Part shown: positions 2,612 to 22,256 of the stretch, one piece after another | Position numbering within the stretch: the first letter of the stretch is position 1 | Layout of the letters: each line of letters opens with the position of its first letter | DNA from: Planctomycetota bacterium | GTDB taxonomy: Bacteria > Planctomycetota > Planctomycetia > Pirellulales > Pirellulaceae | Length of the DNA stretch: 27,472 nt | Direction of reading: 5' to 3' | Assembly (NCBI GenBank): GCA_029259935.1 | Contig: JAJDEH010000033.1 | Coordinates: 1-27,472, forward strand | Position numbers and translations under genes: made by a program | The notes under the pieces: generated by a model | What the model was told of the DNA's origin: nothing | The model's input: only the letters and a program-made list of their open reading frames with translations | Database searches by the model: none

Positions 2612-3508
2612 TTAGTCCGAGAGTAGGTCATGAATCACGGACTGAGATTTTGCGGCTTCATCCGGGTTCGATCCGCGATGACTTCGCAGTTGGAGTAGCG
2701 ATTTCCAGAGCCCCCACCCGCGCCCTCTGGCCCAGGTCGCTTCGTCAACCGCCAGTTCCCCGCGGAACCTCTCCCTGCTTGCTCCTGAAAACAGGGTCCA
2801 GGCAATGGTGACATCACATGCTGGATCGCCGGCGGCCAACTGGCCAAAGTCAATCACGGCGCTCAACCTTCCCTCTTGAACCAAAAGATTCCCAACAGCG
2901 ACATCACCGTGTATCCAGACCGGCATGCCAAGCCATTTCGCGTCGAGGGCGGAATTCCAAACCGCGGTTGCTCGCCGAGCATCAACCACGTGGTGCAATT
3001 CATCAATACACTGACGAGTTTGCCCATCGTACACCGAAAGGTTTCCGCCTCGGAAAAAGTTTTCCGGGCCTGGGGAAGGCGCGTCTTTCGCATCGATATC
3101 TTGCAAGGCGTTGAGAAAAGTCGCCAAGTGTATTGCGAATTGAGTTAGATTGTCGATTCGTTCCGCGGTGGCACTCTCGCCTTGCAGCCATGTGTTGATC
3201 GACCAATGCCATGGCAGCCCGCGCCCCGGCTGGCCCATTGCGACGGGAACGGGAATCGGCAAGGGAAGATAGGGAGCGAGCTTCGGCAGCCACCGTTGCT
3301 CGGTGTTGACATGGGCCGCGTATTCCGGCCCGCTCGGCACCCGAACACTCATCTGGTCGCCCAAACGAAAGGTTCGGTTATCATGTCCGTCAATTTCGAC
3401 GGGCTCAACCGAAAGATCCGCCCATTCCGGAAATTGATCGGCGATCAAACACGCCACGAGGGGCGCATCGATCTGAATCAATTCGTGCGAGTGATCATGC
3501 AGAGTCAT
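2612..3508 (-). CDS. Aminoglycoside phosphotransferase (APH) family small-molecule kinase
   Basis: A 298-residue protein of the APH/choline kinase fold that transfers phosphate from ATP to a small molecule. The catalytic loop HGDVAVGN (residues 200-207, family pattern HGDxxxxN) and the metal-binding IDFG (219-222) are intact. The N-lobe has GHDNRTFRLG followed by SVRVPSG, where an arginine occupies the place of the usual ATP-binding lysine; this is common in a subgroup annotated as aminoglycoside phosphotransferases. The start ATG at 3508 has no clear Shine-Dalgarno. The left arm of a 397-bp inverted-repeat element begins 13 bp upstream of the start, so the promoter may be inside that element. 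The substrate cannot be read from sequence; antibiotic resistance should not be assumed. Confidence 0.85.
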   Translation of the reverse strand: MTLHDHSHELIQIDAPLVACLIADQFPEWADLSVEPVEIDGHDNRTFRLGDQMSVRVPSGPEYAAHVNTEQRWLPKLAPYLPLPIPVPVAMGQPGRGLPWHWSINTWLQGESATAERIDNLTQFAIHLATFLNALQDIDAKDAPSPGPENFFRGGNLSVYDGQTRQCIDELHHVVDARRATAVWNSALDAKWLGMPVWIHGDVAVGNLLVQEGRLSAVIDFGQLAAGDPACDVTIAWTLFSGASRERFRGELAVDEATWARGRGWGLWKSLLQLRSHRGSNPDEAAKSQSVIHDLLSD

Positions 3509-3918: not shown

Positions 3919-4156
3919 GTAGCTTGAAGCTTCTCAATATCTGGCATCCCGTCGGGATGCGGAAAATACGCGCTCAGCAACCGGTGGTGCGCCTACGGCA
4001 ACCACCGGCTAATGGCTGTGAGCCCTATCGGGTTCAAATCCATCCCGAAGGGATTTCAGCAATTAGCCGGTGGTCAGCGCAGCGCCACCACCGGTTACCA
4101 AACATGTACACAACAGCATCCTGACAGGATGCCAGCCCGATGCGCAAAATGACGAA
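3915..4156 (+). repeat. Multi-hairpin intergenic repeat, copy A
   Basis: A 242-bp copy of an element also present at 5764-5999. From 3944 to 4156 the copies have equal length (213 bp) and I count 3 mismatches. It is built of nested hairpins: GCATCCC-gtc-GGGATGC (3944-3960), CCGGTGGT paired with ACCACCGG twice, ATCCC-gaa-GGGAT in the centre, and GCATCCT-gac-AGGATGC (4116-4132). The outer hairpins resemble each other, so the unit is roughly symmetrical. Copy A has a 7-bp insertion (GAAGCTT) near its left end. Weaker similarity to copy B continues to about 4192. Frames translated through it are spurious. Confidence 0.85.
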
Positions 4157-4381
4157 TTCGGAAGACCGAATAGACTCTCGACGTCGAGAGCCCATCAATC
4201 TGAAACCTGGTCGATTCTCCCACCGCTCATTAGCATTCTCCCCATCGCGACGACTCCTTGGACGGTCAAAGCAATGCCAAGATCGAATGCGGCTTGTTGG
4301 CGATCTGCCTTCGGACGATACTGGTGTCAATGATAAATCAACTGGGTGGAAGGCTATTCTTACTAGGGGGATATGGGTGGC

Positions 4382-5763: not shown

Positions 5764-5999
5764 CTAGGTAGCTTCTCGATGTCTGGCATCCCGTCGGGAT
5801 GCGGCAATTACGCGCTCAGCAACCGGTGGTGCGCCTACGGCAACCACCGGCTAATGGCTGTGAGCCCTATCGGGTTCAAGTCCATCCCGAAGGGATTTCA
5901 GCAATTAGCCGGTGGTCAGCGCAGCGCCACCACCGGTTACCAAACATGTACACAACAGCATCCTGACAGGATGCCAGCCCGATGCGCAAAATGACGAAT
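5764..5999 (+). repeat. Multi-hairpin intergenic repeat, copy B
   Basis: Second copy of the element at 3915-4156, same orientation. The outer hairpins are at 5786-5802 (GCATCCC/GGGATGC) and 5958-5974 (GCATCCT/AGGATGC), and the paired CCGGTGGT/ACCACCGG hairpins lie between them. It lacks the 7-bp insertion of copy A. Similarity to copy A resumes after a ~10-bp gap and runs to about 6047 (GAAGACCGAAT, GACTCTCG). The direct repeats enclose about 1.6 kb holding the membrane protein gene and the broken toxin-antitoxin pair. Confidence 0.85.
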
Positions 6000-6657
6000 G
6001 ACGAAGGAATGGAAGACCGAATGGACTCTCGGCGACGGAAGCCCCTCCGTTCTTTGGCATTAGTCATTCGGAATTCTTTACTCTTTTGGAATTCGTCATT
6101 CAACCAGCCGCCGGGCGTTATCGCCGCTTGTTGCAATCCCGATTCGACGCCGCCACCCCACCGACACCGCTCGCAAGGCGAGACCGTCATGGCATGATCA
6201 AACGCCGTCAGGAATCTCACGTGAAAGGACACGGCGACCCGAGATGCCTATCTGATGAGTGGCACTTTCTGTTCTTGATAGTCTACAATTATTTGGATTC
6301 CTGCAAGGCCGTGGCGGTGATGTAGCGACCTTCTAGGTGATTCCGATTTTGGTCACCCTTGACGGGAACAAGGCGTTTTGAATTCGCATACGGCAAGATC
6401 GGGTTCACTTCGTCCCGATCTCGGTGTCTGCCGTGAGTGACTCGACAGATGCTTCGCAGAATCTGTTGAAATTGTTGCACTCGGAACGGCAGTGGTGTTA
6501 GTTTATGTGACTACGGACTTACTTTGGCATCCTAAGGGACCTGTGGTGCGGACCTTACAAAAGGCTTGCTTCACCCCCATCGCAGGGCAATTCGAATGGC
6601 GATCCTCTGAAATCTTACCACGACGCAAGCGAACGAGGATCTCCACAATTCCGGTGG
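6000..6657. other. Gene-poor stretch before the propeller-like gene
   Basis: The first ~100 bp contain degenerate motifs of the type AATGACGAATGACG (5990-6005) and their inverted form near 6062-6102, following repeat copy B. Frames of 60-118 codons here, including one on the minus strand at 6289-6480, have no recognisable domain and I do not call them. From 6511 the frame of the next gene is open but has no ATG, GTG or TTG until 6658. Confidence 0.5.
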
Positions 6658-7884
6658 GTGCCATTCCTTGTTATCTCGTTTTTGTTTATTAGCTCTATCT
6701 GGTTGGCTTGGCCTGCCCGCCACAAAACACGGTCGCCGTCGAGCGAAACGCCGCCAGAGTCTGTCCGTCGTCAACCGCCAGCCACGAGCGAGTTGGTGAT
6801 CCGGCGCGAAGTCGAAGTTTTCTATTTGGATGGGCATGACTCGGTCGTTCGTGCGGTTACTGTTTCGGGTGATGGAAAGTATCTCGCTTCGGCGGACGAA
6901 CAAGGCACTGTACTTGTCCGCCAGATCGACGTACTGCAAGTCAACGACGAATCGCGAACGCTGAAATACGTAGTTGACCGGGACTTCCCAACACTGCCCA
7001 TCACGACATTGGCGACAACGGAAGCGGGACGGCATTTTCTGGTGAGCGGCAATCTAGACCCGCCTCGCATCGCGGTGGTTCCATTTGAGTCTGGCGTCGA
7101 AAGGTCGGTGCTTGTGCGGACGGACGCAACGATCGCGAATCTGTTCACGTACAACGCCGATTCGATGCTTGCATACGCCAACCAACGAGCGGTGACGTTC
7201 TTTGATTTGAGCGCCGCCAAAGTAGTTGGATCGGCTTCAATTTATCCTCATAAGGAATTCGGTTCGGTGCGGGCGTTTGCGGTCGCACCCGACCGGCGGC
7301 ATTTCGCATTAAGCTCAAGCAACTTCGTCGGCAGGTACAGTAGCGCGCCGGATAGGCTAACCATCTTCAATACTTCTGGCGATGACGTTTACGTTTGGCA
7401 GTTCAAAACGAACCAAGACTACAGCCGCGCACAACTACAGTTTACTGCGTCCGACACACTGACGGTTTATTTGCCTGGCGGTGTTGGTGAGCCTCATTAT
7501 TCTGGCCTGCCTGGGGAACTCCGCCGATGGCGGTTGGCTGACGGGAGTTGGCACGAAGCTGACAACTCTCCTGGGCCCTCTGGATGGTTTCACACAAGCA
7601 CGGTGTCGCTCGACGGGAAAACCATTTATTTGGCGGGGGAGCCTGTAGCGAGTTCCTTCGTCGGAGACCGCACGTGGCAGGTAGTGGCCATGTCGTCGAT
7701 GACTGGAGACCTACTATGGAAACAGGAACTCAGAATCGGTGTCAAGAATTCCAAAGCTGATTTCGGGTGTAGGCCGATTACTGCACTAACCGCCGTCCCG
7801 CGATCAAACATCGTCGCAGCAGGACTTTGGGACGGTCGAGTTGCGTTGCTCCGACCTGTCAGCGAGTCAGAGGATGGATATTGA
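6658..7884 (+). CDS. Membrane-anchored WD40/beta-propeller-like protein
   Basis: 408 residues. An N-terminal hydrophobic segment (residues 2-19, PFLVISFLFISSIWLAWP) followed by RHK suggests a membrane anchor or uncleaved signal. The rest reads like a degenerate propeller: HDSVVRAVTVSGDGKYLASADEQGTVLVRQI is a clear WD40-type blade, followed by weaker blades (GRHFLVSGN, DGKTIYLAGE, RSNIVAAGLWDGRVALLRP). Such proteins bind partners and no catalytic residues are visible. The start is a GTG at 6658 with a weak GAGG about 20 nt upstream. The reading frame is open upstream to 6511 with plausible residues (PQFRW just before the membrane segment), so the true N-terminus is uncertain. Its end overlaps a possible small ORF leading to the kinase gene. 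Confidence 0.75.
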   Translation: MPFLVISFLFISSIWLAWPARHKTRSPSSETPPESVRRQPPATSELVIRREVEVFYLDGHDSVVRAVTVSGDGKYLASADEQGTVLVRQIDVLQVNDESRTLKYVVDRDFPTLPITTLATTEAGRHFLVSGNLDPPRIAVVPFESGVERSVLVRTDATIANLFTYNADSMLAYANQRAVTFFDLSAAKVVGSASIYPHKEFGSVRAFAVAPDRRHFALSSSNFVGRYSSAPDRLTIFNTSGDDVYVWQFKTNQDYSRAQLQFTASDTLTVYLPGGVGEPHYSGLPGELRRWRLADGSWHEADNSPGPSGWFHTSTVSLDGKTIYLAGEPVASSFVGDRTWQVVAMSSMTGDLLWKQELRIGVKNSKADFGCRPITALTAVPRSNIVAAGLWDGRVALLRPVSESEDGY

Positions 7885-8032
7885 AAACAATTTCCTCGTT
7901 ACACCATTTAGAAAAACGATGGACGAGCGGTGTGCGATAATCAGGGAGATTGGTAGACTATTCCTCGGCTGGCCGTATTCGTCCGGCTTAAGGGCGAGTC
8001 GTGTGAACGTCAAAGAAAGTCATCATGGTTGA
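7874..8032 (+). CDS. Possible 52-codon linking ORF
   Basis: ATG at 7874 preceded by AGAGG overlaps the stop of the propeller gene, and its TGA (8030-8032) overlaps the ATG of the kinase gene at 8025. The product starts MDIENNFLVTPFRKTMDERC, is unrecognised and has no membrane segment. The two overlaps fit translational coupling, but a chance frame is equally possible. Confidence 0.3.
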   Translation: MDIENNFLVTPFRKTMDERCAIIREIGRLFLGWPYSSGLRASRVNVKESHHG

Positions 8033-9062
8033 AAGAAACGAGCTTAAGCCGAACACTCTTTTTGTTGAGGTGTCTGGAGCAGGGCTTCCCGAAGTGGATG
8101 GTCTCTTCGTTTCCTCAACGGCTCCTCCAACCAAATCGGAATCGGGAACTGTATCAAGTGTCGGTTACTGGAATGGCAAAATGGCGTGGGATCGAGCCGA
8201 TGGCAAAAGCGCTCGAAGCCCCGCCCTTTCGTACTCCAATACCTACCAATCATGGAGAATCTGTCGTCTGGATGGCCATCTCGCATACGACATGACCTGC
8301 GAAGATGAATTGCCGCCTACCGATAGGGAATGGCACGTCTATAAAAAGGGAGTCGCACCTGCTCCGAAGGTCGTAATCCATCACTACGACCCACGGCAAC
8401 CTTGTCCCGAACCTAACGTTGTCTTCGTTCTTGGAGGCCCTGGTGCTGGAAAAGGAACGATGTGCGAACTTGCCGAGTCTCAGCTTGGCTGGACGCACCT
8501 TTCGACGGGAGATTTACTTCGAGCCGCGCGCGAGGCCGGAGGTCCAACCGCCACCACCATCGACGAGTTTATTGCTGCGGGAAAGTTGGTGCCGAATGAA
8601 ATCACCGTGACTCTGCTCAGCAGCGCGATGGAGAAAGTCACCAGAACGACAGGCAAGAACAACTTCTTGCTCGATGGATTCCCACGCTCCCTGGATAACT
8701 TAGAAGGCTGGTACGAGATATTCGGCCGCGAAGCTGAACTGCCTAAGATGTTGTACTTTGAGTGCCCCTACGCTGTTCTTGAGGAGCGTATTCTGGGCCG
8801 CGCGAAATACACAGGTAGAATCGACGATAATGCTCAGAGCCTGAAGCTGAGATTCGACACGTTCAAGGCTGAAACGCTGCCAACCATCGAGTGCTTCAAG
8901 AGTAAAGACAAGTGCGTGGAAATCGACACCAGTCAAGACCGACAGACCGTCTATTCCCTCGTCCAAAGCAGCCTCGCTGAATACACCGACAGTGATTTCG
9001 CTGCCAAACCGCTCACCGAACGAGCTGAGATGCTTCTCGGTCTGCGACCTTTTTCCAACTAA
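8025..9062 (+). CDS. UMP-CMP/adenylate kinase-like protein with fused N-terminal domain, eukaryote-like
   Basis: 345 residues. Residues 131-322 form a nucleoside monophosphate kinase. The P-loop is GGPGAGKGT (137-145), followed by LSTGDLLRAARE (NMP-binding), GKLVPNEITVTLL, the signature LLDGFPRSLDN (215-225) and GRAKYTGRIDDN with a short LID. These are closest in my memory to eukaryotic UMP-CMP kinases (pattern VVFVLGGPGAGKGT, HLSxGDLLR, FLIDGFPR, SGRxDDN). They differ from bacterial Adk, which has a long LID, and from bacterial Cmk, another fold. Residues 12-115 are a separate tryptophan-rich domain (VSGAGLPEVDGLF, YWNGKMAWD, YQSWRIC, LPPTDREWHVY) ending in a PAP linker. I associate it with protist proteins but cannot name it. 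A ~23-residue C-terminal tail follows. Probable reaction: phosphate transfer from ATP to UMP or CMP; untested. Start ATG 8025 overlaps the preceding ORF. Confidence 0.8.
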   Translation: MVERNELKPNTLFVEVSGAGLPEVDGLFVSSTAPPTKSESGTVSSVGYWNGKMAWDRADGKSARSPALSYSNTYQSWRICRLDGHLAYDMTCEDELPPTDREWHVYKKGVAPAPKVVIHHYDPRQPCPEPNVVFVLGGPGAGKGTMCELAESQLGWTHLSTGDLLRAAREAGGPTATTIDEFIAAGKLVPNEITVTLLSSAMEKVTRTTGKNNFLLDGFPRSLDNLEGWYEIFGREAELPKMLYFECPYAVLEERILGRAKYTGRIDDNAQSLKLRFDTFKAETLPTIECFKSKDKCVEIDTSQDRQTVYSLVQSSLAEYTDSDFAAKPLTERAEMLLGLRPFSN

Positions 9063-9079
9063 TCGACCAGCAGAATCTT

Positions 9080-12700: not shown

Positions 12701-13435
12701 TTAGAACTTCGGCCACTGCTTGCCAAGCGTCTTTTTTTGAATGTCCGTCAGTTCCGCGATGCCCTTGCGCGCCAACTTGAGCAGTGACGCCAACTCACGA
12801 TCGCTGAACGTCGCTTCTTCTCCCGTCCCTTGAATTTCGACAAACTGTCCCCCACCCGTCATCACCACGTTCATATCGACGGCGGCGGCGAAGTCTTGTT
12901 CGTAACATAAGTCGAGCGTCGCCCGTCCCTCGACAATGCCCGCGCTGATCGCGGCCACACTGTCGCGCAGGGGATACGTTTTGGGATCTGGCAGTTGTTG
13001 CTTGATGCTCGTTATGGCATCGACCAGTGCGATGAACGCTCCCGTGATGCTGGCGGTTCGGGTGCCGCCGTCGGCTTCCAGGACATCGCAGTCGACGGTG
13101 ATCATCTGTTCGCCCAAAGCATCCAGATCGGCGACAGCTCGCAGGCTGCGGCCGATCAGTCGCTGGATCTCGGTTGTCCTTCCATCCACTTTGCCGGCCC
13201 GGTCGCGACGCTTTCGCGGATTGGTGCTGCCGGGCAACATGTTGTACTCCGCCGTGATCCACCCTTTGCCTTCGCCGACCATCCAGGGCGGCACCTTGGG
13301 CTCGACGCTGGCCGTGCATAGCACGGTGGTTCCGCCCGCTTGAAGTAAAACACTGCCCGGCGCGGTGCGCGTGAAGCGGCGTTTGATCTTGATGGGGCGC
13401 AGTTCGTCGATCTTACGTGAAGGCGGCTTGGCCAT
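12701..13435 (-). CDS. rph: Ribonuclease PH
   Basis: 3'-exoribonuclease that trims tRNA precursors using phosphate. 244 residues, family length. Visible family blocks: the N-terminal [36 protein letters not shown], then [49 protein letters not shown] (phosphate-binding arginines in the [15 protein letters not shown] motif) and [23 protein letters not shown]. It starts 14 bp after argF ends and is followed by qor after 19 bp, so it is most likely cotranscribed with the arginine genes. The start ATG at 13435 agrees with the family N-terminus. Confidence 0.95.
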
Positions 13436-13449
13436 GATCAGCGGTTTCC

Positions 13450-14373
13450 TTACGGTTCAAGTTTTGCGTCTAGCAACCAGGCCAGCAGGCCCTTTTGCAC
13501 GTGCATCCGATTGGCCGCTTGTTGAATCACGACGCTGTTCGGGCCATCGATCACTTCGGCGGTGACTTCTTCGCCGCGATGCGCGGGAAGGCAATGCAAG
13601 AAGTAGGCGTCGCTGGGCGCGTGGGACATGAGCTTGGCATTCACCTGCAGGTCGGCGAATTTGCGAGCCCGTTCTTCGCGTTCCGCCTCTTGCCCCATGC
13701 TGGCCCAAACGTCCGTATAAACAGCACACGCTCCTTCGACCGCCTCGACGGGATCTTCGGTTTCGGTCAGGCGGACATCGGGGATTTCATGCTTCAACTT
13801 ATCGAGAAACTTCGGGTCGAAATGATATCCCGCCGGAGAAGCAATCGACATGTGGACATCCAGCCGGCCGCAAATAATGGCCAAACTGCGCGCCACATTG
13901 TTGGCATCGCCAACGTAGGCCAGCTTCAACCCCATGGGATCGCCACGTAGTTCGATCAAGGTGAACAAATCGGCGAGCGCCTGGCACGGATGATAGCTTT
14001 CGGTCAGTCCGTTGATCACCGGGCACGTGCTGTACTTGGCGATTTCCTCCACCGTGGCGTGCTGCTTGGCGCGACACACGATGACGTCGACGTATTCGCT
14101 CAACACGCGAGAAAAATCTTCCGCCGACTCGCGCGAACCCCACCCCACGTCTTCGCCAAGAAACAGGCTGCCTCCGCCGAGCTGCGTCATGCCCGCCTGG
14201 AAGCTGACTCGGGTCCGCATCGATGGTTTTTCAAACAGCAAACCAGCAACTTGCCCAGTGAGTACGGGCTCGCGAACACCTCGTTTGAGCTTTGCTTTCA
14301 ATTGGGCTGAAACAGCCAACACGGCATGGATATCTTCAGTGTTCAAATCGAACAAGGAAAGTACGTGTCGCAT
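13450..14373 (-). CDS. argF: Ornithine carbamoyltransferase
   Basis: Makes citrulline from ornithine and carbamoyl phosphate, step 6 of arginine synthesis. 307 residues from the ATG at 14373. The carbamoyl-phosphate loop is S51-M-R-T-R55 ([11 protein letters not shown]), with HPCQALADL at 128-136, the ornithine-binding region DVWASMGQE at 221-229, and HCLPAHRG at 260-267. The start at 14373 has GAAGGA 7 nt upstream; an in-frame TTG at 14388 would overlap that site and is rejected. The order is argB-argD-argF-rph on the minus strand. The 163-bp gap before this gene contains AT-rich degenerate repeat sequence, so an internal promoter is possible. Confidence 0.95.
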
Positions 14374-14536
14374 GGGAGGTTCCTTCAATAGCTTGGCGAC
14401 GTGCCAAGTAGCAGCGGTCCATTCAAATGTTCAACTCAGCGAATCCGCGAGATTTAACACTTTGAACATGTGATATTCAGATTTGAATTTGTTTCGTATT
14501 TCGATGTTTAGAATTGGGAATTCCTGGCAACATCAT

Positions 14537-15742
14537 TCAAGCGTTCAGTTCCTTGAGAGCGCTGGCAAGAATATCGCACCCTTCCTCGGCCTGTTCCGCG
14601 GTCAGATTCAACGCGGGCAGCAAGCGGATCACCGTTCCTTGTGTGCAGTTGACCAGCAGGTTTTGCTCCATGCACGACTTCACGACGTCGCTGCCATCGA
14701 CACTCAATTCGATGCCGATCATCATTCCCAGAATGCGGACATCTTGCACCAGTTCGCACTCTTGTTGAATCGCTGCCAGTCGTTGTCGAAAAACGTCGCT
14801 GACGGCAACGGCATGCTCAAGGAGGTTTTCGTTTTCGATCATTTCGATCGCCGCCATGCCGGCCCGCGCGGCGATGGGATTTCCTCCAAACGTGGCGGCA
14901 TGCATTCCGGGTCGCAAACTGGGAGCAATTTCGGCGGTGGTGAGCAGCGCCGCGCCCGCGATCCCACCACAGACCGCCTTCGCTAACGTCATCACGTCGG
15001 GCGTGACACCAAAGTGCTGGTAAGCGAACCAGTGGCCCGTTCGCCCGCAGCCGGTTTGTACCTCGTCAAAGATGAGGAGCAGGTTATTTTCGTCGGCCAA
15101 TTGTCGCAAGCCGGCGAGAAAACCTTCGGGCGGAATCCGGATTCCACCTTCGCCCTGGATCGGCTCGACCATGATGGCACACGTTTCATCGTCGATCAGT
15201 TGCTGGACGGCCTCCAGATCGCCGAACGGGGCGTACGAGAAGCCCGCCATTAGCGGTCCCAGCCCTTCATGATATTTGGGCTGCGCCGTCGCGGTGGTCG
15301 CTCCCAGCGTGCGACCGTGAAACCCGCCTTCGAATGTGATGATCTTGTAGCGATCTTGGGGTGTGTGCAGTCTGGCGAGTTTGATGGCCGCTTCGTTGGC
15401 CTCCGCGCCGGAACTACAAAAGAACGCTTTTCCACCAAAGCTTTTTTCCGATAGCAACTTCGCCCATTGACCTTGCGACTCGACATGCCACGTGTTGGGA
15501 ACGTGAATCAAGGTCGCCACTTGTTCTTGGATTGCTTCAACGATCGGTGGCGGACAGTGGCCCAAGAGATTGCAGCCCCACCCCGGAAACAGATCCAGAT
15601 AGCGTTTTCCTTCGCTATCCCAAACGTAGGAACCCTCCCCTCGGACAAGGCTCACTGGATAACGTGTGTAATTCGGAATCAAGTACTTTTTGAACAGTTC
15701 GACTGTGTCCGAGGAACTCAATGTTCCAGTTGCTGTTGTCAC
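14537..15742 (-). CDS. argD: Acetylornithine aminotransferase
   Basis: PLP enzyme that converts N-acetylglutamate semialdehyde to N-acetylornithine with glutamate, step 4 of arginine synthesis. 401 residues. [15 protein letters not shown] (110-124) binds the PLP phosphate, FHGRTLGA follows at 141-148, [13 protein letters not shown] (224-236) holds the PLP aspartate, and the Schiff-base lysine is K255 in [10 protein letters not shown]. The start is a GTG at 15742, with AAGGAG ending 7 nt upstream. Related class-III aminotransferases have other substrates, but the position between argB and argF supports ArgD. The gap to argB is 122 bp. Confidence 0.93.
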
Positions 15743-15864
15743 GGAATGGCTCCTTTTTTACTTAATTCGAAGATCGCGGCCCTCGGCGTCCGCGAGTTGT
15801 CAGTAAGGCGACCGCTGGATCCCGCTTCAGGTTCGCGCCGCGGTCTCCTCGCTGCCATCGTTTT

Positions 15865-16749
15865 CTAACGATCGTCCTTTACGATCTGCGTGCCCACGCC
15901 CTCCGTCGTATAAACCTCAAGCAACAACGAATGACGAACGCGCCCATCAACGATATGTACTTTGCGCACGCCTCGATTTAGTGTTTCCAAACAAGCTTCC
16001 ACTTTGGGAATCATTCCCGTCCCAATGTGTCCCTGGTCGATCATCTGTCGAGCGGCGGATTCGGTTAGTGAATGGATCAGCGAGCCAGCATCGTTCGAAT
16101 CTCGCAACACTCCCGCGACGTCACTGAGAAACACCAGCTTTTCCGCTCCCAATGCCTGGGCAACCGCGGTCGCCGCCGTATCCGCGTTGACATTCAGTTT
16201 GCGGCCGTCCTCGGTCAGGCACATCGATGGAATAATCGGAACCTGGCCTGTATAGCAAAGCTTTTCAATCACGCCGCGATCAACACTTGTCACTCGGCCG
16301 ACATGACCCAGATCGACCGGATTGCCATCTCCATCGATCAGAGAAAGCGGTTCGCCAAACAGCACATTGGTTGAGCGAAAATTGAGCGTCATTGCCCGAC
16401 CGCCCACTCCTTCCAACTTGCTGGCGATCTCCTCGTTCACTTCATGAGCGAGGACTCTCTCCACGATTTCCAACGTGGCGTCATCGGTAACTCGGCGGCC
16501 TTGAACGAAGTGAGGCTCAATCCCCGCCTGATCCATCGCTTGACTAATTCGCTTGCCGCCACCGTGGACTACCACGGGCCGCATGCCGACAGACTCCATG
16601 AAGACAATGTCCAGCAGCATATGGCGAAGCGCATCTTCATCCTCCATCACGCTGCCGCCCAGCTTGATGACGGTGACCTTATCTCGAAACTCGCGGATCC
16701 AGCCCAAGGCCTCGATCAGCGTGTCGGCCTTCGCGATCGCTTCTAGCAA
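15865..16749 (-). CDS. argB: Acetylglutamate kinase
   Basis: Phosphorylates N-acetylglutamate, step 2 of arginine synthesis and often the feedback-controlled one. Visible: KLGGSVMED (glycine loop), [64 protein letters not shown] and the ADP-side [15 protein letters not shown]. The start is a judgement. The open frame continues to a TTG at 16857 and has an ATG at 16806, but family similarity begins at [16 protein letters not shown]. The TTG at 16749 has GGAG 8 nt upstream and gives 294 residues, the usual ArgB length. The ATG at 16806 (313 residues) is the main alternative. It is the first gene of the cluster and is divergent from the SDR gene. Confidence 0.92.
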
Positions 16750-16892
16750 GAGAGAAGCTCCGGTAAAGAAGAGCTGCCGTAGCTTGGGAATTTGAAAACG
16801 CGTCATTCTAAACCGCTGGTCTCCGCAAACATAGCGGGGGTACAATCGTTGGGGCACGTCCGCGAACTCCTTCAGCCAACAGGACCAGAATC

Positions 16893-18645: not shown

Positions 18646-18718
18646 GGCCCCATCGTCTAGCGGTCTAGGACTCCGGCCTTTCACGCCGGCAACACGGGTT
18701 CGAGTCCCGTTGGGGTCA
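18646..18718 (+). tRNA. tRNA-Glu (anticodon UUC)
   Basis: 73 nt. The acceptor GGCCCCA pairs with TGGGGTC plus discriminator A. The anticodon stem is CCGGC/GCCGG (18673-18677 and 18685-18689), with loop CTTTCAC and anticodon TTC at 18680-18682. The T arm is ACGGGTTCGAGTCCCGT. CCA is not encoded directly after the discriminator (CT follows), so the 3' CCA is added later. Confidence 0.95.
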
Positions 18719-20834: not shown

Positions 20835-21473
20835 TTAGGGCAGCAGGCTGATAACCGCAGCGCTGGGGCGAGCGATGACATGGGCCGCGACGAGGGTTCC
20901 GAGAGCGGCCACATTTTCCTTGCCCGCGGTCACCGCGGCTTTGACGGCGGCCACGTCGCCCTTGATGATCACGGTCACGTATCCGCCGCCAAGTTTTTCC
21001 TTGCCAACGACTTCCACATTGGCCGCCTTACAAGCCGTATCGATCGCCTCGAACACGGCAGTGAAGCCTTGCGTTTCGATGAGACCTAGCGCATAGGTGG
21101 GGGCTTCGCTCACGGATGTCTCCTTGTTTGAATCGTGTGCCTTGCCGGACCGAGCCTCTGGCACATACACGACTTCTTGTTGAATGAGTGGATTGTATTC
21201 GCGATCACTTTCGATGGCGGACCAAGCTCCCGAGTCCGGCCGATTGATGATCTTGGTGACGGGGCCGCCACCCATTTGCTCGGCAACGGCTCGTCCGGCT
21301 TCGATTGCGGCGTCGATCGCGGCGGTCGAGCCGACCAGTTTGACGCAGACGCCGAGGAAGTCGTTAATCTCGACTTGTAATACCCGAATCGACGCCGCTT
21401 TATCCATCACGTCCAGCGCGGCGATGGCAGGAGTCAATCCTGTCGTTTCGAGCATTCCCAGCGTTTCGGTCAT
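20835..21473 (-). CDS. Tandem BMC-domain microcompartment shell protein
   Basis: 212 residues with two BMC domains in the ordinary order. Domain 1 (about 4-78) begins LGMLETTGLTPAIAALDVMDKAASIRV; domain 2 (126-203) begins YALGLIETQGFTAVFEAIDTACKAANVEVV, with pore-loop sequence KLGGGYVTVIIKGDV. A 45-residue linker containing YNPLIQQEVVYVPEA joins them. Two-domain BMC proteins usually form pseudohexameric trimers that tile protein shells. Domain 2 alone would pass as a classic one-domain shell protein, while the pore loop of domain 1 (INDFLGVCV) is unusual. No aldehyde dehydrogenase, aldolase, pentameric vertex protein or other microcompartment gene is in the window. Start ATG 21473, no Shine-Dalgarno seen. 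Confidence 0.88.
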   Translation of the reverse strand: MTETLGMLETTGLTPAIAALDVMDKAASIRVLQVEINDFLGVCVKLVGSTAAIDAAIEAGRAVAEQMGGGPVTKIINRPDSGAWSAIESDREYNPLIQQEVVYVPEARSGKAHDSNKETSVSEAPTYALGLIETQGFTAVFEAIDTACKAANVEVVGKEKLGGGYVTVIIKGDVAAVKAAVTAGKENVAALGTLVAAHVIARPSAAVISLLP

Positions 21474-21776: not shown

Positions 21777-22256
21777 CTAGTGGCCGCATCCGCAGGTGGG
21801 CTCACAACCGCAACCACAGTGATGGTCGCAGCAACGGGGCTTGCAGCAGCGCTTGAACAGACCGCCGAACAGGCCACAGCGCGGCTTGCAGCAGCAAGGA
21901 TCACAGCAGGGCTCGCAGCCGCATACGGGCTCACAACCACAAGCGGGCTCGCAACCGCAAACCGGTTCGCAGCAGCAAGGATCACAGCAGCGTGGCTTGC
22001 AGCAGCGCTTGAACAGGCCGACGAACAAGCCGCGCGGCTTGCAGCAGCAAGGATCGCAGCACGGGTCGCAGCAAGCGGGTTCGCAACCACAAGCGGGCTC
22101 ACAACCACAGACGGGCTCGCAACAGGTATCGCACGCGGGGGCGCAACAGCCGCCGTGGTGCGACTTGAACAGAAAACCAAACGCCTGGGCGTTGGAAGCG
22201 CTGAACAAATACAGCAACGCGATGGCCAACGCGGGAACAAGAACTCGTGTCTTCAT
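21777..22256 (-). CDS. Secreted ultra-cysteine-rich repeat protein
   Basis: 159 residues. The signal peptide is MKTRVLVPALAIALLYLFSASNAQA. The mature part (~134 residues) has 44 cysteines by my count, about one third, arranged in CCEPxCGCEPxCGCEP, CCDPCCC and KPRCC units. It contains a duplication: CCCKPR, then GLFVGLFKR or GLFGGLFKR, then CCKPRCCD occurs twice. There is no enzyme motif. Such density suggests metal binding or a disulfide-hardened envelope or surface protein; both are inference. AAGGAG precedes the ATG by 8 nt and sits in a small inverted repeat (AGGAGCCCTCCT) that could partly mask it. Frames on the other strand give glutamine/alanine-rich artefacts. It is a single-gene transcript with its own terminator. 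Confidence 0.8.
   Translation of the reverse strand: MKTRVLVPALAIALLYLFSASNAQAFGFLFKSHHGGCCAPACDTCCEPVCGCEPACGCEPACCDPCCDPCCCKPRGLFVGLFKRCCKPRCCDPCCCEPVCGCEPACGCEPVCGCEPCCDPCCCKPRCGLFGGLFKRCCKPRCCDHHCGCGCEPTCGCGH

What the first reader, a model, noticed from the sequence alone, without database searches (positions are those of the whole stretch)
8025..9062. Eukaryote-like UMP-CMP kinase fused to an unusual tryptophan-rich domain in a bacterial genome
Seen: an intact NMP kinase (GGPGAGKGT, HLSTGDLLR, LLDGFPR, short LID GRIDDN) preceded by a ~115-residue domain with VSGAG...VDGLF, WNGKMAWD, SWRIC and W-HVY spacing, and followed by a ~23-residue tail. Known: bacteria normally use Cmk/PyrH for CMP/UMP, and short-LID UMP-CMP kinases are typical of eukaryotes. 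Inference: the gene was exchanged between a protist lineage and this bacterium, or belongs to a bacterial family close to the eukaryotic root. It sits beside a repeat-rich island, which fits accessory DNA.
Basis: partly seen in the sequence, partly recalled or inferred. Interest (0 to 1): 0.72.

Follow-up and report, generated by a model that had tools for sequence, protein, structure and literature searches.

The report
Wandering kinase gene with unknown domain
A planctomycete gene joins an enzyme that resembles the UMP-CMP kinase of eukaryotes to a strongly conserved small domain of unknown role; it is a rare extra gene that appears to have passed on its own between distant bacteria, most likely to recycle pyrimidine nucleotides.

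Summary
In detail: ORF 8025-9062 (+), 345 aa, has an intact UMP-CMP-type kinase (residues 131-317) behind a ~125-residue domain with no Pfam or clear PDB match. It is no oddity: 80 relatives (73-90% identical) were kept from GTDB genomes, named as Planctomycetota, Verrucomicrobiota, Pseudomonadota, Gemmatimonadota and others. It is accessory: 5 of 199 Planctomycetota and 2 of 369 Gammaproteobacteria had it, and 21 of 21 host genomes tested keep their own Cmk. Between Planctomycetota and Gammaproteobacteria it is 71-77% identical (medians), the ordinary Adk of the same genomes 39%; all 1,378 pairs of 53 loci align over the gene, but 6 share more than 300 nt of flank: this fits single-gene transfer. 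The kinase joins eukaryotic UMP-CMP kinases (97/88; 99/99), though an AU test does not exclude joining it to bacterial Adks (p 0.145). No protist carrier was seen. The N-terminal domain is at least as conserved as the kinase in most comparisons, also exists alone, and in some Proteobacteria sits with NUDIX, HelD, a Hen1-like methyltransferase or a macrodomain. Best reading: a mobile accessory CMP/UMP kinase with an undescribed beta domain, for nucleotide salvage; untested.

The parts
7946..8024 (+). 5' leader of ~79 nt that is shared along with the gene by Stieleria tagensis (L001) and a planctomycete MAG (L002); similarity ends beyond it
   Evidence: blastn matches to both L001 and L002 start at window 7946; no sigma-70-like promoter found by the simple scan
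8025..9062 (+). Fused gene: N-terminal domain + UMP-CMP-type NMP kinase + conserved tail, 345 aa
8025..8399 (+). N-terminal domain, residues 1-125; predicted all-beta, no Pfam or clear PDB match; also exists as a stand-alone 124-126-aa gene elsewhere
8415..8975 (+). NMP kinase domain, residues 131-317, short LID
8433..8459 (+). P-loop GGPGAGKGT, residues 137-145
   Evidence: sequence; most of its positions nearly invariant
8697..8699 (+). Asn225, the NMP-base position (PRxxxN); Asn in 319 of 321 family sequences (the other 2, L044 and L069, were read only to an early stop), Gln in 32 of 32 bacterial Adks
8814..8831 (+). Short LID loop GRIDDN, residues 264-269
   Evidence: sequence
8976..9059 (+). 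C-terminal tail, residues 318-345, with PLTERAEMLLGLRP(Y/F)-like sequence conserved in the family
9063..9073 (+). Short 3' stretch after the stop still shared with L001 and L002; end of the shared unit

Best explanation
It is an accessory pyrimidine nucleoside-monophosphate kinase (CMP/UMP + ATP to CDP/UDP + ADP) of the eukaryote-like UMP-CMP kinase clade, carrying an N-terminal beta-rich domain of an undescribed family, and it spreads between distant bacteria as a single-gene unit of about 1.13 kb with its own leader. Shown by sequence: intact catalytic motifs, UMP-CMP-type clade in the best trees, a single-gene homology unit in unrelated surroundings, patchy distribution on top of native Adk and Cmk. 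Inferred: transfer itself, CMP/UMP preference (Asn225), and a role in rephosphorylating NMPs released by RNA or nucleotide turnover, because some proteobacterial members are co-directional with a NUDIX hydrolase and/or HelD. The N-domain is taken as a functional binding or assembly module, because it is under strong purifying selection and also exists alone beside the fused form; what it binds is unknown.
For: Kinase: TIGR01359 E 6e-56; human, yeast and Dictyostelium UMP-CMP kinases best in PDB by sequence and, by fold, yeast and Dictyostelium at ranks 1-4 (TMt 0.85-0.87); tree fam+eukaryotic UMPK 97/88, 99/99 with five long Adks dropped; Asn at the base position in 319 of 321 family sequences against Gln in 32 of 32 bacterial Adks. 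Accessory: 15 of 16 hosts have, besides the gene, an Adk-like match of 24-39% identity; 21 of 21 have Cmk above cut-off. Transfer: median identities over 49 Planctomycetota-Gammaproteobacteria pairs 77 (N-domain), 71 (kinase), 39 (Adk); 6 of 1,378 pairs with >300 nt flank homology; the window shares exactly 7946-9072/9073 with two loci; a copy on a Comamonas plasmid near an integrase and IS; patchy counts. N-domain: dN lower than the kinase in 6 of 6 window comparisons; stand-alone forms. Salvage link: NUDIX directly downstream in L049, L086, L154, L156 (gaps 109, 64, 108 nt and a 4-nt overlap), HelD 15 and 60 nt upstream in L074 and L056.
Against: No activity data. Score below the curated TIGR01359 cut-off. 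The x of LSxGDLLR is Thr (as in AK1) in 248 of 321 and Ala, as in all three eukaryotic UMPKs used, in 14; yeast Ura6 has Gln at the 'Asn225' position, so that residue alone is not decisive. AU does not reject fam+Adk (p 0.145). On the family tree the phyla are clustered (14 label changes against 36.5 in shuffles), so cross-phylum moves may be few, and Adk is one control gene only; strong constraint plus repeated loss and relocation could mimic part of the pattern. Within Gammaproteobacteria the N-domain is less conserved than the kinase (medians 86 and 90). The Comamonas plasmid is typed non-mobilizable. The NUDIX/HelD link is seen only in Proteobacteria (NUDIX in 4 hosts, HelD in 7; three and four of them Marinobacter) and not around the Halomonadaceae fused copies looked at (L042, L055, L063, L073, L075, L120, L122, L125) nor in the Planctomycetota or Verrucomicrobiota loci.
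Confidence: 0.6

Rival explanations
1. The fused gene was taken whole from a protist (or a protist gave the kinase) and then spread among bacteria: a true eukaryote-to-bacterium transfer.
For: Family joined to, and unresolved among, eukaryotic UMP-CMP kinases; in 119 Planctomycetota no protein outside the family scored above 149 bits with TIGR01359, against 188-193 for intact family members.
Against: No eukaryote with the N-domain among the listed and named hits; very long stem; three eukaryotic UMPKs only; AU does not reject fam+Adk; when rooted on the eukaryotes, kinase-only proteins from contigs of unknown host branch first, so the fused form need not be what entered bacteria.
Confidence: 0.3
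2. The protein works on RNA ends: the N-domain binds or senses damaged RNA ends and the kinase acts in RNA repair or end processing together with HelD, a Hen1-like methyltransferase, NUDIX and macrodomain proteins.
For: HelD (NF041464, 533 bits in L074, cut-off 419) and a protein matching the C-terminal part of Hen1 (TIGR04074, 199 bits, cut-off 340) next to the fused gene in L074 and L056 and in line with a stand-alone N-domain in L119; macrodomain gene 16 nt upstream of a stand-alone N-domain in L123 and L124.
Against: The kinase has the NMP-kinase motifs and its listed family matches are NMP kinases and general P-loop families; the Hen1-like score is below cut-off; no RNA ligase was recognised, though most neighbours were not annotated; none of these partners found around Planctomycetota copies.
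Confidence: 0.15
3. Ordinary bacterial adenylate kinase with an unremarkable extra domain.
For: Same fold; AU p 0.145 for fam+Adk; some records name relatives 'adenylate kinase' or 'adenylate kinase family enzyme'.
Against: Separate from 32 of 32 Adks at 100/98; Asn instead of Gln at the base position; 15 of 16 hosts have another Adk-like gene.
Confidence: 0.08
4. The N-domain and kinase form a self-maintaining (selfish or addictive) unit, with the stand-alone N-domain as its partner or antidote.
For: Both forms are rare, yet fused and stand-alone copies occur together in G009, G766, G1288, G1586 and in tandem in L044.
Against: Most hosts looked at carry only the fused gene; no toxin-like feature recognised; low dN/dS on the kinase; no PADLOC match.
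Confidence: 0.06

Closest known systems
Eukaryotic UMP-CMP kinase (CMPK1 / Ura6 / Dictyostelium UMP-CMP kinase; TIGR01359)
   Same: Kinase domain 43-45% identical, short LID, catalytic motifs, fold, place in the best trees
   Different: Has a 125-residue N-terminal domain and a conserved tail; Thr rather than Ala in LSxG in most members; 189 bits, under the curated cut-off 207.6
AK1-type / bacterial adenylate kinase
   Same: Fold, P-loop, short LID (AK1 and short Adks); HLSTGDLLR as in AK1
   Different: Asn in place of Gln at the NMP-base position; AK1 35% and a Schistosoma AK 41% identical, best of 32 bacterial Adks 34%
Proteins named 'nucleoside monophosphate kinase', 'UMP-CMP kinase' or 'adenylate kinase family enzyme' in Planctomycetota and others (source names)
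   Same: The same family, full length, up to 98% identical
   Different: Names look automatic; no paper on them was seen in the listings of seven searches

Membership tests
UMP-CMP kinase family (TIGR01359) | Score above the curated cut-off (207.6 bits) | tested here: not met
   189.3 bits; intact family members in three Planctomycetota genomes 188-193; 0 of 119 genomes and 0 of 14 controls over cut-off. So it is described as UMP-CMP-kinase-like, not filed as a curated member
UMP-CMP kinase family (TIGR01359) | Groups with eukaryotic UMP-CMP kinases in a tree | tested here: met
   97/88, 99/99 without five long rows; but AU p 0.145 for the alternative fam+Adk, and only three eukaryotic UMPKs used
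UMP-CMP kinase family (TIGR01359) | Asn at the base-contact position and Ala in LSxG (their role is recalled from structural work, not from a call) | tested here: inconclusive
   Asn in 319 of 321; Ala in 14 of 321, Thr in 248; yeast Ura6 has Gln at the first position
UMP-CMP kinase family (TIGR01359) | Phosphorylates CMP and UMP | not testable with these tools
   needs enzyme assay
Bacterial adenylate kinase (Adk) | Gln at the AMP-base position | tested here: not met
   Asn225; Gln in 32 of 32 bacterial Adks
Bacterial adenylate kinase (Adk) | Groups with bacterial Adks | tested here: inconclusive
   separate from 32 of 32 Adks in the best tree (100/98), but a tree with fam+Adk is not rejected (AU p 0.145)
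Bacterial Cmk / PyrH | Match to Cmk (TIGR00017 / PF02224) | tested here: not met
   TIGR00017 15 bits against cut-off 135.55, PF02224 12 bits against 26; hosts carry a separate Cmk. PyrH not tested beyond the Pfam and NCBIfam scans
Integron gene cassette | attC site next to the ORF | tested here: inconclusive
   no attC-like repeat noticed by eye in the 80 nt from the stop on in 80 loci; no attC model was run
Known anti-phage defence protein | PADLOC match | tested here: not met
   0 families at E <= 0.01

The most novel reading that the evidence does not exclude
The N-terminal domain is a new nucleotide- or RNA-end-handling module that travels with a eukaryote-derived UMP-CMP kinase as a one-gene mobile trait and, in some Proteobacteria, belongs to a stress operon with a NUDIX hydrolase, the RNA-polymerase-recycling motor HelD, a Hen1-like RNA methyltransferase and macrodomain proteins, recycling nucleotides and repairing transcripts under stress.
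Probability: 0.2. Interest if true: 0.78.

Novelty: new variant of a known kind. Interest (0 to 1): 0.55.

Why it matters
Core nucleotide kinases are usually regarded as vertically inherited housekeeping enzymes. Here an extra one, of the eukaryotic type, is found across bacterial phyla at ~75% identity as a lone gene while its hosts keep their own Cmk and Adk. It carries a strongly conserved domain with no described family or clear fold match, also found alone. If a protist donor were shown, it would be a case of a eukaryotic metabolic enzyme becoming a bacterial mobile trait; if the operon link to HelD, NUDIX and a Hen1-like methyltransferase holds, it points to an unrecognised nucleotide or RNA salvage module.

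Tried and rejected

Limits: the protein hit lists show 120 of 7,783, 168 and 7,966 hits; genome searches score a limited number of first-look candidates, and each prevalence count includes the centre genome, chosen because it carries the gene. Host names of G handles are inferred from the loci that led to them; phyla follow submitters' titles. Some MAG contigs may be mis-binned; cultured hosts (Stieleria, Rhodopirellula, Rubripirellula, Halomonas, Vreelandella, Marinobacter, Nitrincola) and the Comamonas plasmid carry the argument.

Rows dropped: one search used 53 loci of 81 (80 plus window): ten left out for cut or odd ends (L020, L028, L031, L035, L044, L060, L067, L069, L070, L080), the rest for less than 2 kb of flank. 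One search left out L012, L020, L058, L060, L069. One search used the window, 12 of 80 loci, 3 kinase-only proteins, 6 eukaryotic and 32 Adk rows; one search dropped P0289 and five long Adks (L099, L107, L137, L141, L142). (made while checking this report) used 18 loci, the window, L044, 6 kinase-only proteins and 6 eukaryotic rows. The 321 sequences overlap between loci and protein lists.

Full report
What is there. The window is taken to be a planctomycete contig, because the nearest relatives of the gene are (closest named one: Stieleria tagensis, 90% over the full length; tree); no other gene was placed. ORF 8025-9062 encodes 345 aa without interruption. Residues 131-317 are an NMP kinase; residues 1-125 match no Pfam family in the window protein and no PDB chain at a useful E-value (best 0.12); residues 318-345 are a conserved tail.

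What the kinase is. By sequence the nearest solved structures are human, yeast and Dictyostelium UMP-CMP kinases (E 3e-43 to 4e-41), ahead of a Schistosoma adenylate kinase (7e-34), AK1 (8e-32) and bacterial Adks; by fold the AlphaFold2 model (mean pLDDT 78.6) matches yeast and Dictyostelium UMP-CMP kinases first, with AK1 close behind. In a tree of 54 rows the family (16 rows) joins the three eukaryotic UMP-CMP kinases at 97/88 and is cut off, with all eukaryotic rows, from the 32 bacterial Adks at 100/98; after dropping five long Adks the join is 99/99. Against this: an AU test does not reject holding the family with the Adks (p 0.145) or with AK1 (p 0.138), the stem is long (1.3-1.4; 3.7 without Adks), and the order among eukaryotic UMPKs is open. 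TIGR01359 gives 189 bits, under its curated 207.6. The base-contact position is Asn in 319 of 321 family sequences (L044 and L069 were read only to an early stop) and Gln in 32 of 32 bacterial Adks, but yeast Ura6 also has Gln there; the LSxG position is AK1-like Thr in 248 of 321. I therefore call it UMP-CMP-kinase-like with a likely CMP/UMP preference, untested.

A widespread but rare gene. The scan of GTDB genomes kept 80 loci of 125 relatives found, 73-90% identical; by their titles they are Planctomycetota, Verrucomicrobiota, Pseudomonadota, Gemmatimonadota, Myxococcota, Acidobacteriota, Bdellovibrionota and Hydrogenedentota. Draws of genomes show how rare it is: 5 of 199 Planctomycetota, 2 of 151 in the Halomonas family, 2 of 369 Gammaproteobacteria, 2 of 293 in the order of Nitrincola, 4 of 124 in the Marinobacter genus, 8 of 82 in the Vreelandella genus, one of them a decayed remnant and two with the stand-alone domain only; with the kinase-only query 1 of 149 and 1 of 288 in two further phyla. 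Each count includes the centre genome. Hosts keep their own kinases: Cmk above cut-off in 21 of 21, another Adk-like match of 24-39% identity in 15 of 16.

Why transfer. Over 49 Planctomycetota-Gammaproteobacteria pairs the median identity is 77% (N-domain), 71% (kinase) and 39% (ordinary Adk of the same genomes). In 53 loci with full flanks, 1,378 of 1,378 pairs align over the gene at DNA level, yet 6 pairs share more than 300 nt of flank on either side. The window shares 7946-9072/9073 with Stieleria tagensis and with a planctomycete MAG at 88% and 83%, with the same two ends in both cases and nothing beyond at E 1e-5: a unit of 79 nt leader, gene and about 10 nt. In the family tree Planctomycetota rows need 12 label changes, of which well-supported branches force 2; S. 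tagensis and S. sedimenti fall in different groups, as do several Rhodopirellula; many forks are weak, and over all groups the phyla are far more clustered than shuffled labels (14 changes against 36.5), so moves between phyla may be few. One copy lies on a 266-kb Comamonas plasmid near an integrase and IS elements, a plasmid typed as non-mobilizable. No mobile-element ends were recognised, so how it moves is not known.

The N-terminal domain. It is under strong constraint: dN was lower than in the kinase in 6 of 6 window comparisons, and its median identity is above the kinase's within Planctomycetota (85 and 74) and between them and Gammaproteobacteria (77 and 71), but below it within Gammaproteobacteria (86 and 90). 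45 of 125 positions are invariant in 35 sequences. AlphaFold2 gives an all-beta model (mean pLDDT 81.8, but 56.6-81.8 over five models) without a clear fold match. It also occurs alone as a 124-126-aa gene. In the N-domain tree 12 of the 18 stand-alone rows form a clade of their own (100/99), 6 lie among fused ones. Fused and stand-alone copies, each rare, occur together in four genomes (G009, G766, G1288, G1586), 76-81% identical to each other, and in tandem in L044 (80%). Kinase-only proteins exist too (P0290, 226 aa, 95 contigs; P0308, 37 contigs). Rooted on the eukaryotes, P0290 and three near relatives branch before the other 22 family rows (97/99), P0308 and the fused L044 come next, and a further kinase-only row (P0289) lies among fused ones. 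This suggests that the kinase came first and was fused later, with splits since, but the root sits on a very long stem and the hosts of P0290 and P0308 are unknown.

Neighbours in Proteobacteria. Among 91 loci searched by tblastn at E 1e-15 plus four Marinobacter loci: a NUDIX gene lies directly downstream of the fused gene in L049, L086, L154 and L156 (gaps 109, 64, 108 nt and a 4-nt overlap); HelD lies 15 and 60 nt upstream in L074 and L056, behind NUDIX in L154, and within the locus in L049, L068, L119, L156; a protein like the C-terminal methyltransferase part of Hen1 (L074: 199 bits, cut-off 340) lies in L056, L074, L086, L119; in L119 HelD, this methyltransferase, an aldose epimerase and a stand-alone N-domain follow each other on one strand; in L123 and L124 a macrodomain gene ends 16 nt before the stand-alone N-domain. 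These hosts are not independent (four of seven HelD hosts and three of four NUDIX hosts are Marinobacter), the fused copies in Halomonadaceae lack these neighbours, and none was found in the Planctomycetota or Verrucomicrobiota loci. NUDIX enzymes release NMPs, which an NMP kinase would return to the pool; this is inference.

Verdict. A new variant of a known kind: a UMP-CMP-like kinase with an undescribed domain, spread as a single gene. On checking, confidence in the best explanation was set from 0.62 to 0.60 and in the Adk rival from 0.07 to 0.08, because the AU result and the clustering of phyla deserved more weight.

Noticed in passing
3928-4164 and 5770-6006: 237-nt near-identical duplication (97%) holding a 48-nt imperfect inverted repeat (77% complementary); looks like an intergenic repeat.
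   Followed up: no
21777-22256 (-): 159-aa Cys-rich repeat protein (CGCEPACGCEP...) in a repeat-rich stretch.
   Followed up: no
20835-21473 (-): Protein with two BMC (bacterial microcompartment shell) stretches beside an ORF that looks like pyrF (pyrF named by eye).
   Followed up: no
2612-3508 (-): APH-type phosphotransferase-family protein (133 bits); substrate unknown.
   Followed up: no
12701-16857 (-): RNase PH, ornithine/aspartate carbamoyltransferase and class-III aminotransferase genes and an argB-like ORF in a row on the minus strand (argB named by eye).
   Followed up: no
18646-18718 (+): Single tRNA gene.
   Followed up: no
L126 (G760:C1) 7092-7208: Short decayed remnant of the N-domain with an in-frame stop, beside genes also found next to the intact stand-alone copy in L121: loss in action.
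   Followed up: partly
L069 5912-6943: Rhodobacterales MAG copy whose frame is interrupted after 105 aa; real decay or sequencing error not decided.
   Followed up: no
L074, L056, L119, L049, L154: HelD-type RNA-polymerase-recycling motors (HelD_BACSU model above cut-off in L074 and L049) in Proteobacteria, some with a stand-alone Hen1-like methyltransferase domain nearby: a possible accessory RNA module in its own right.
   Followed up: partly
L068 12197-13962: The HelD-like gene of Marinobacter halophilus reads as two overlapping ORFs (348 and 243 aa), so it may be broken.
   Followed up: no
P0321: A family kinase listed under the isopod Idotea baltica, flagged UNVERIFIED_CONTAM; probably bacterial contamination.
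   Followed up: no
P0205: N-domain joined to a stretch with PF02347 on a 770-nt contig; probably an assembly chimera.
   Followed up: no
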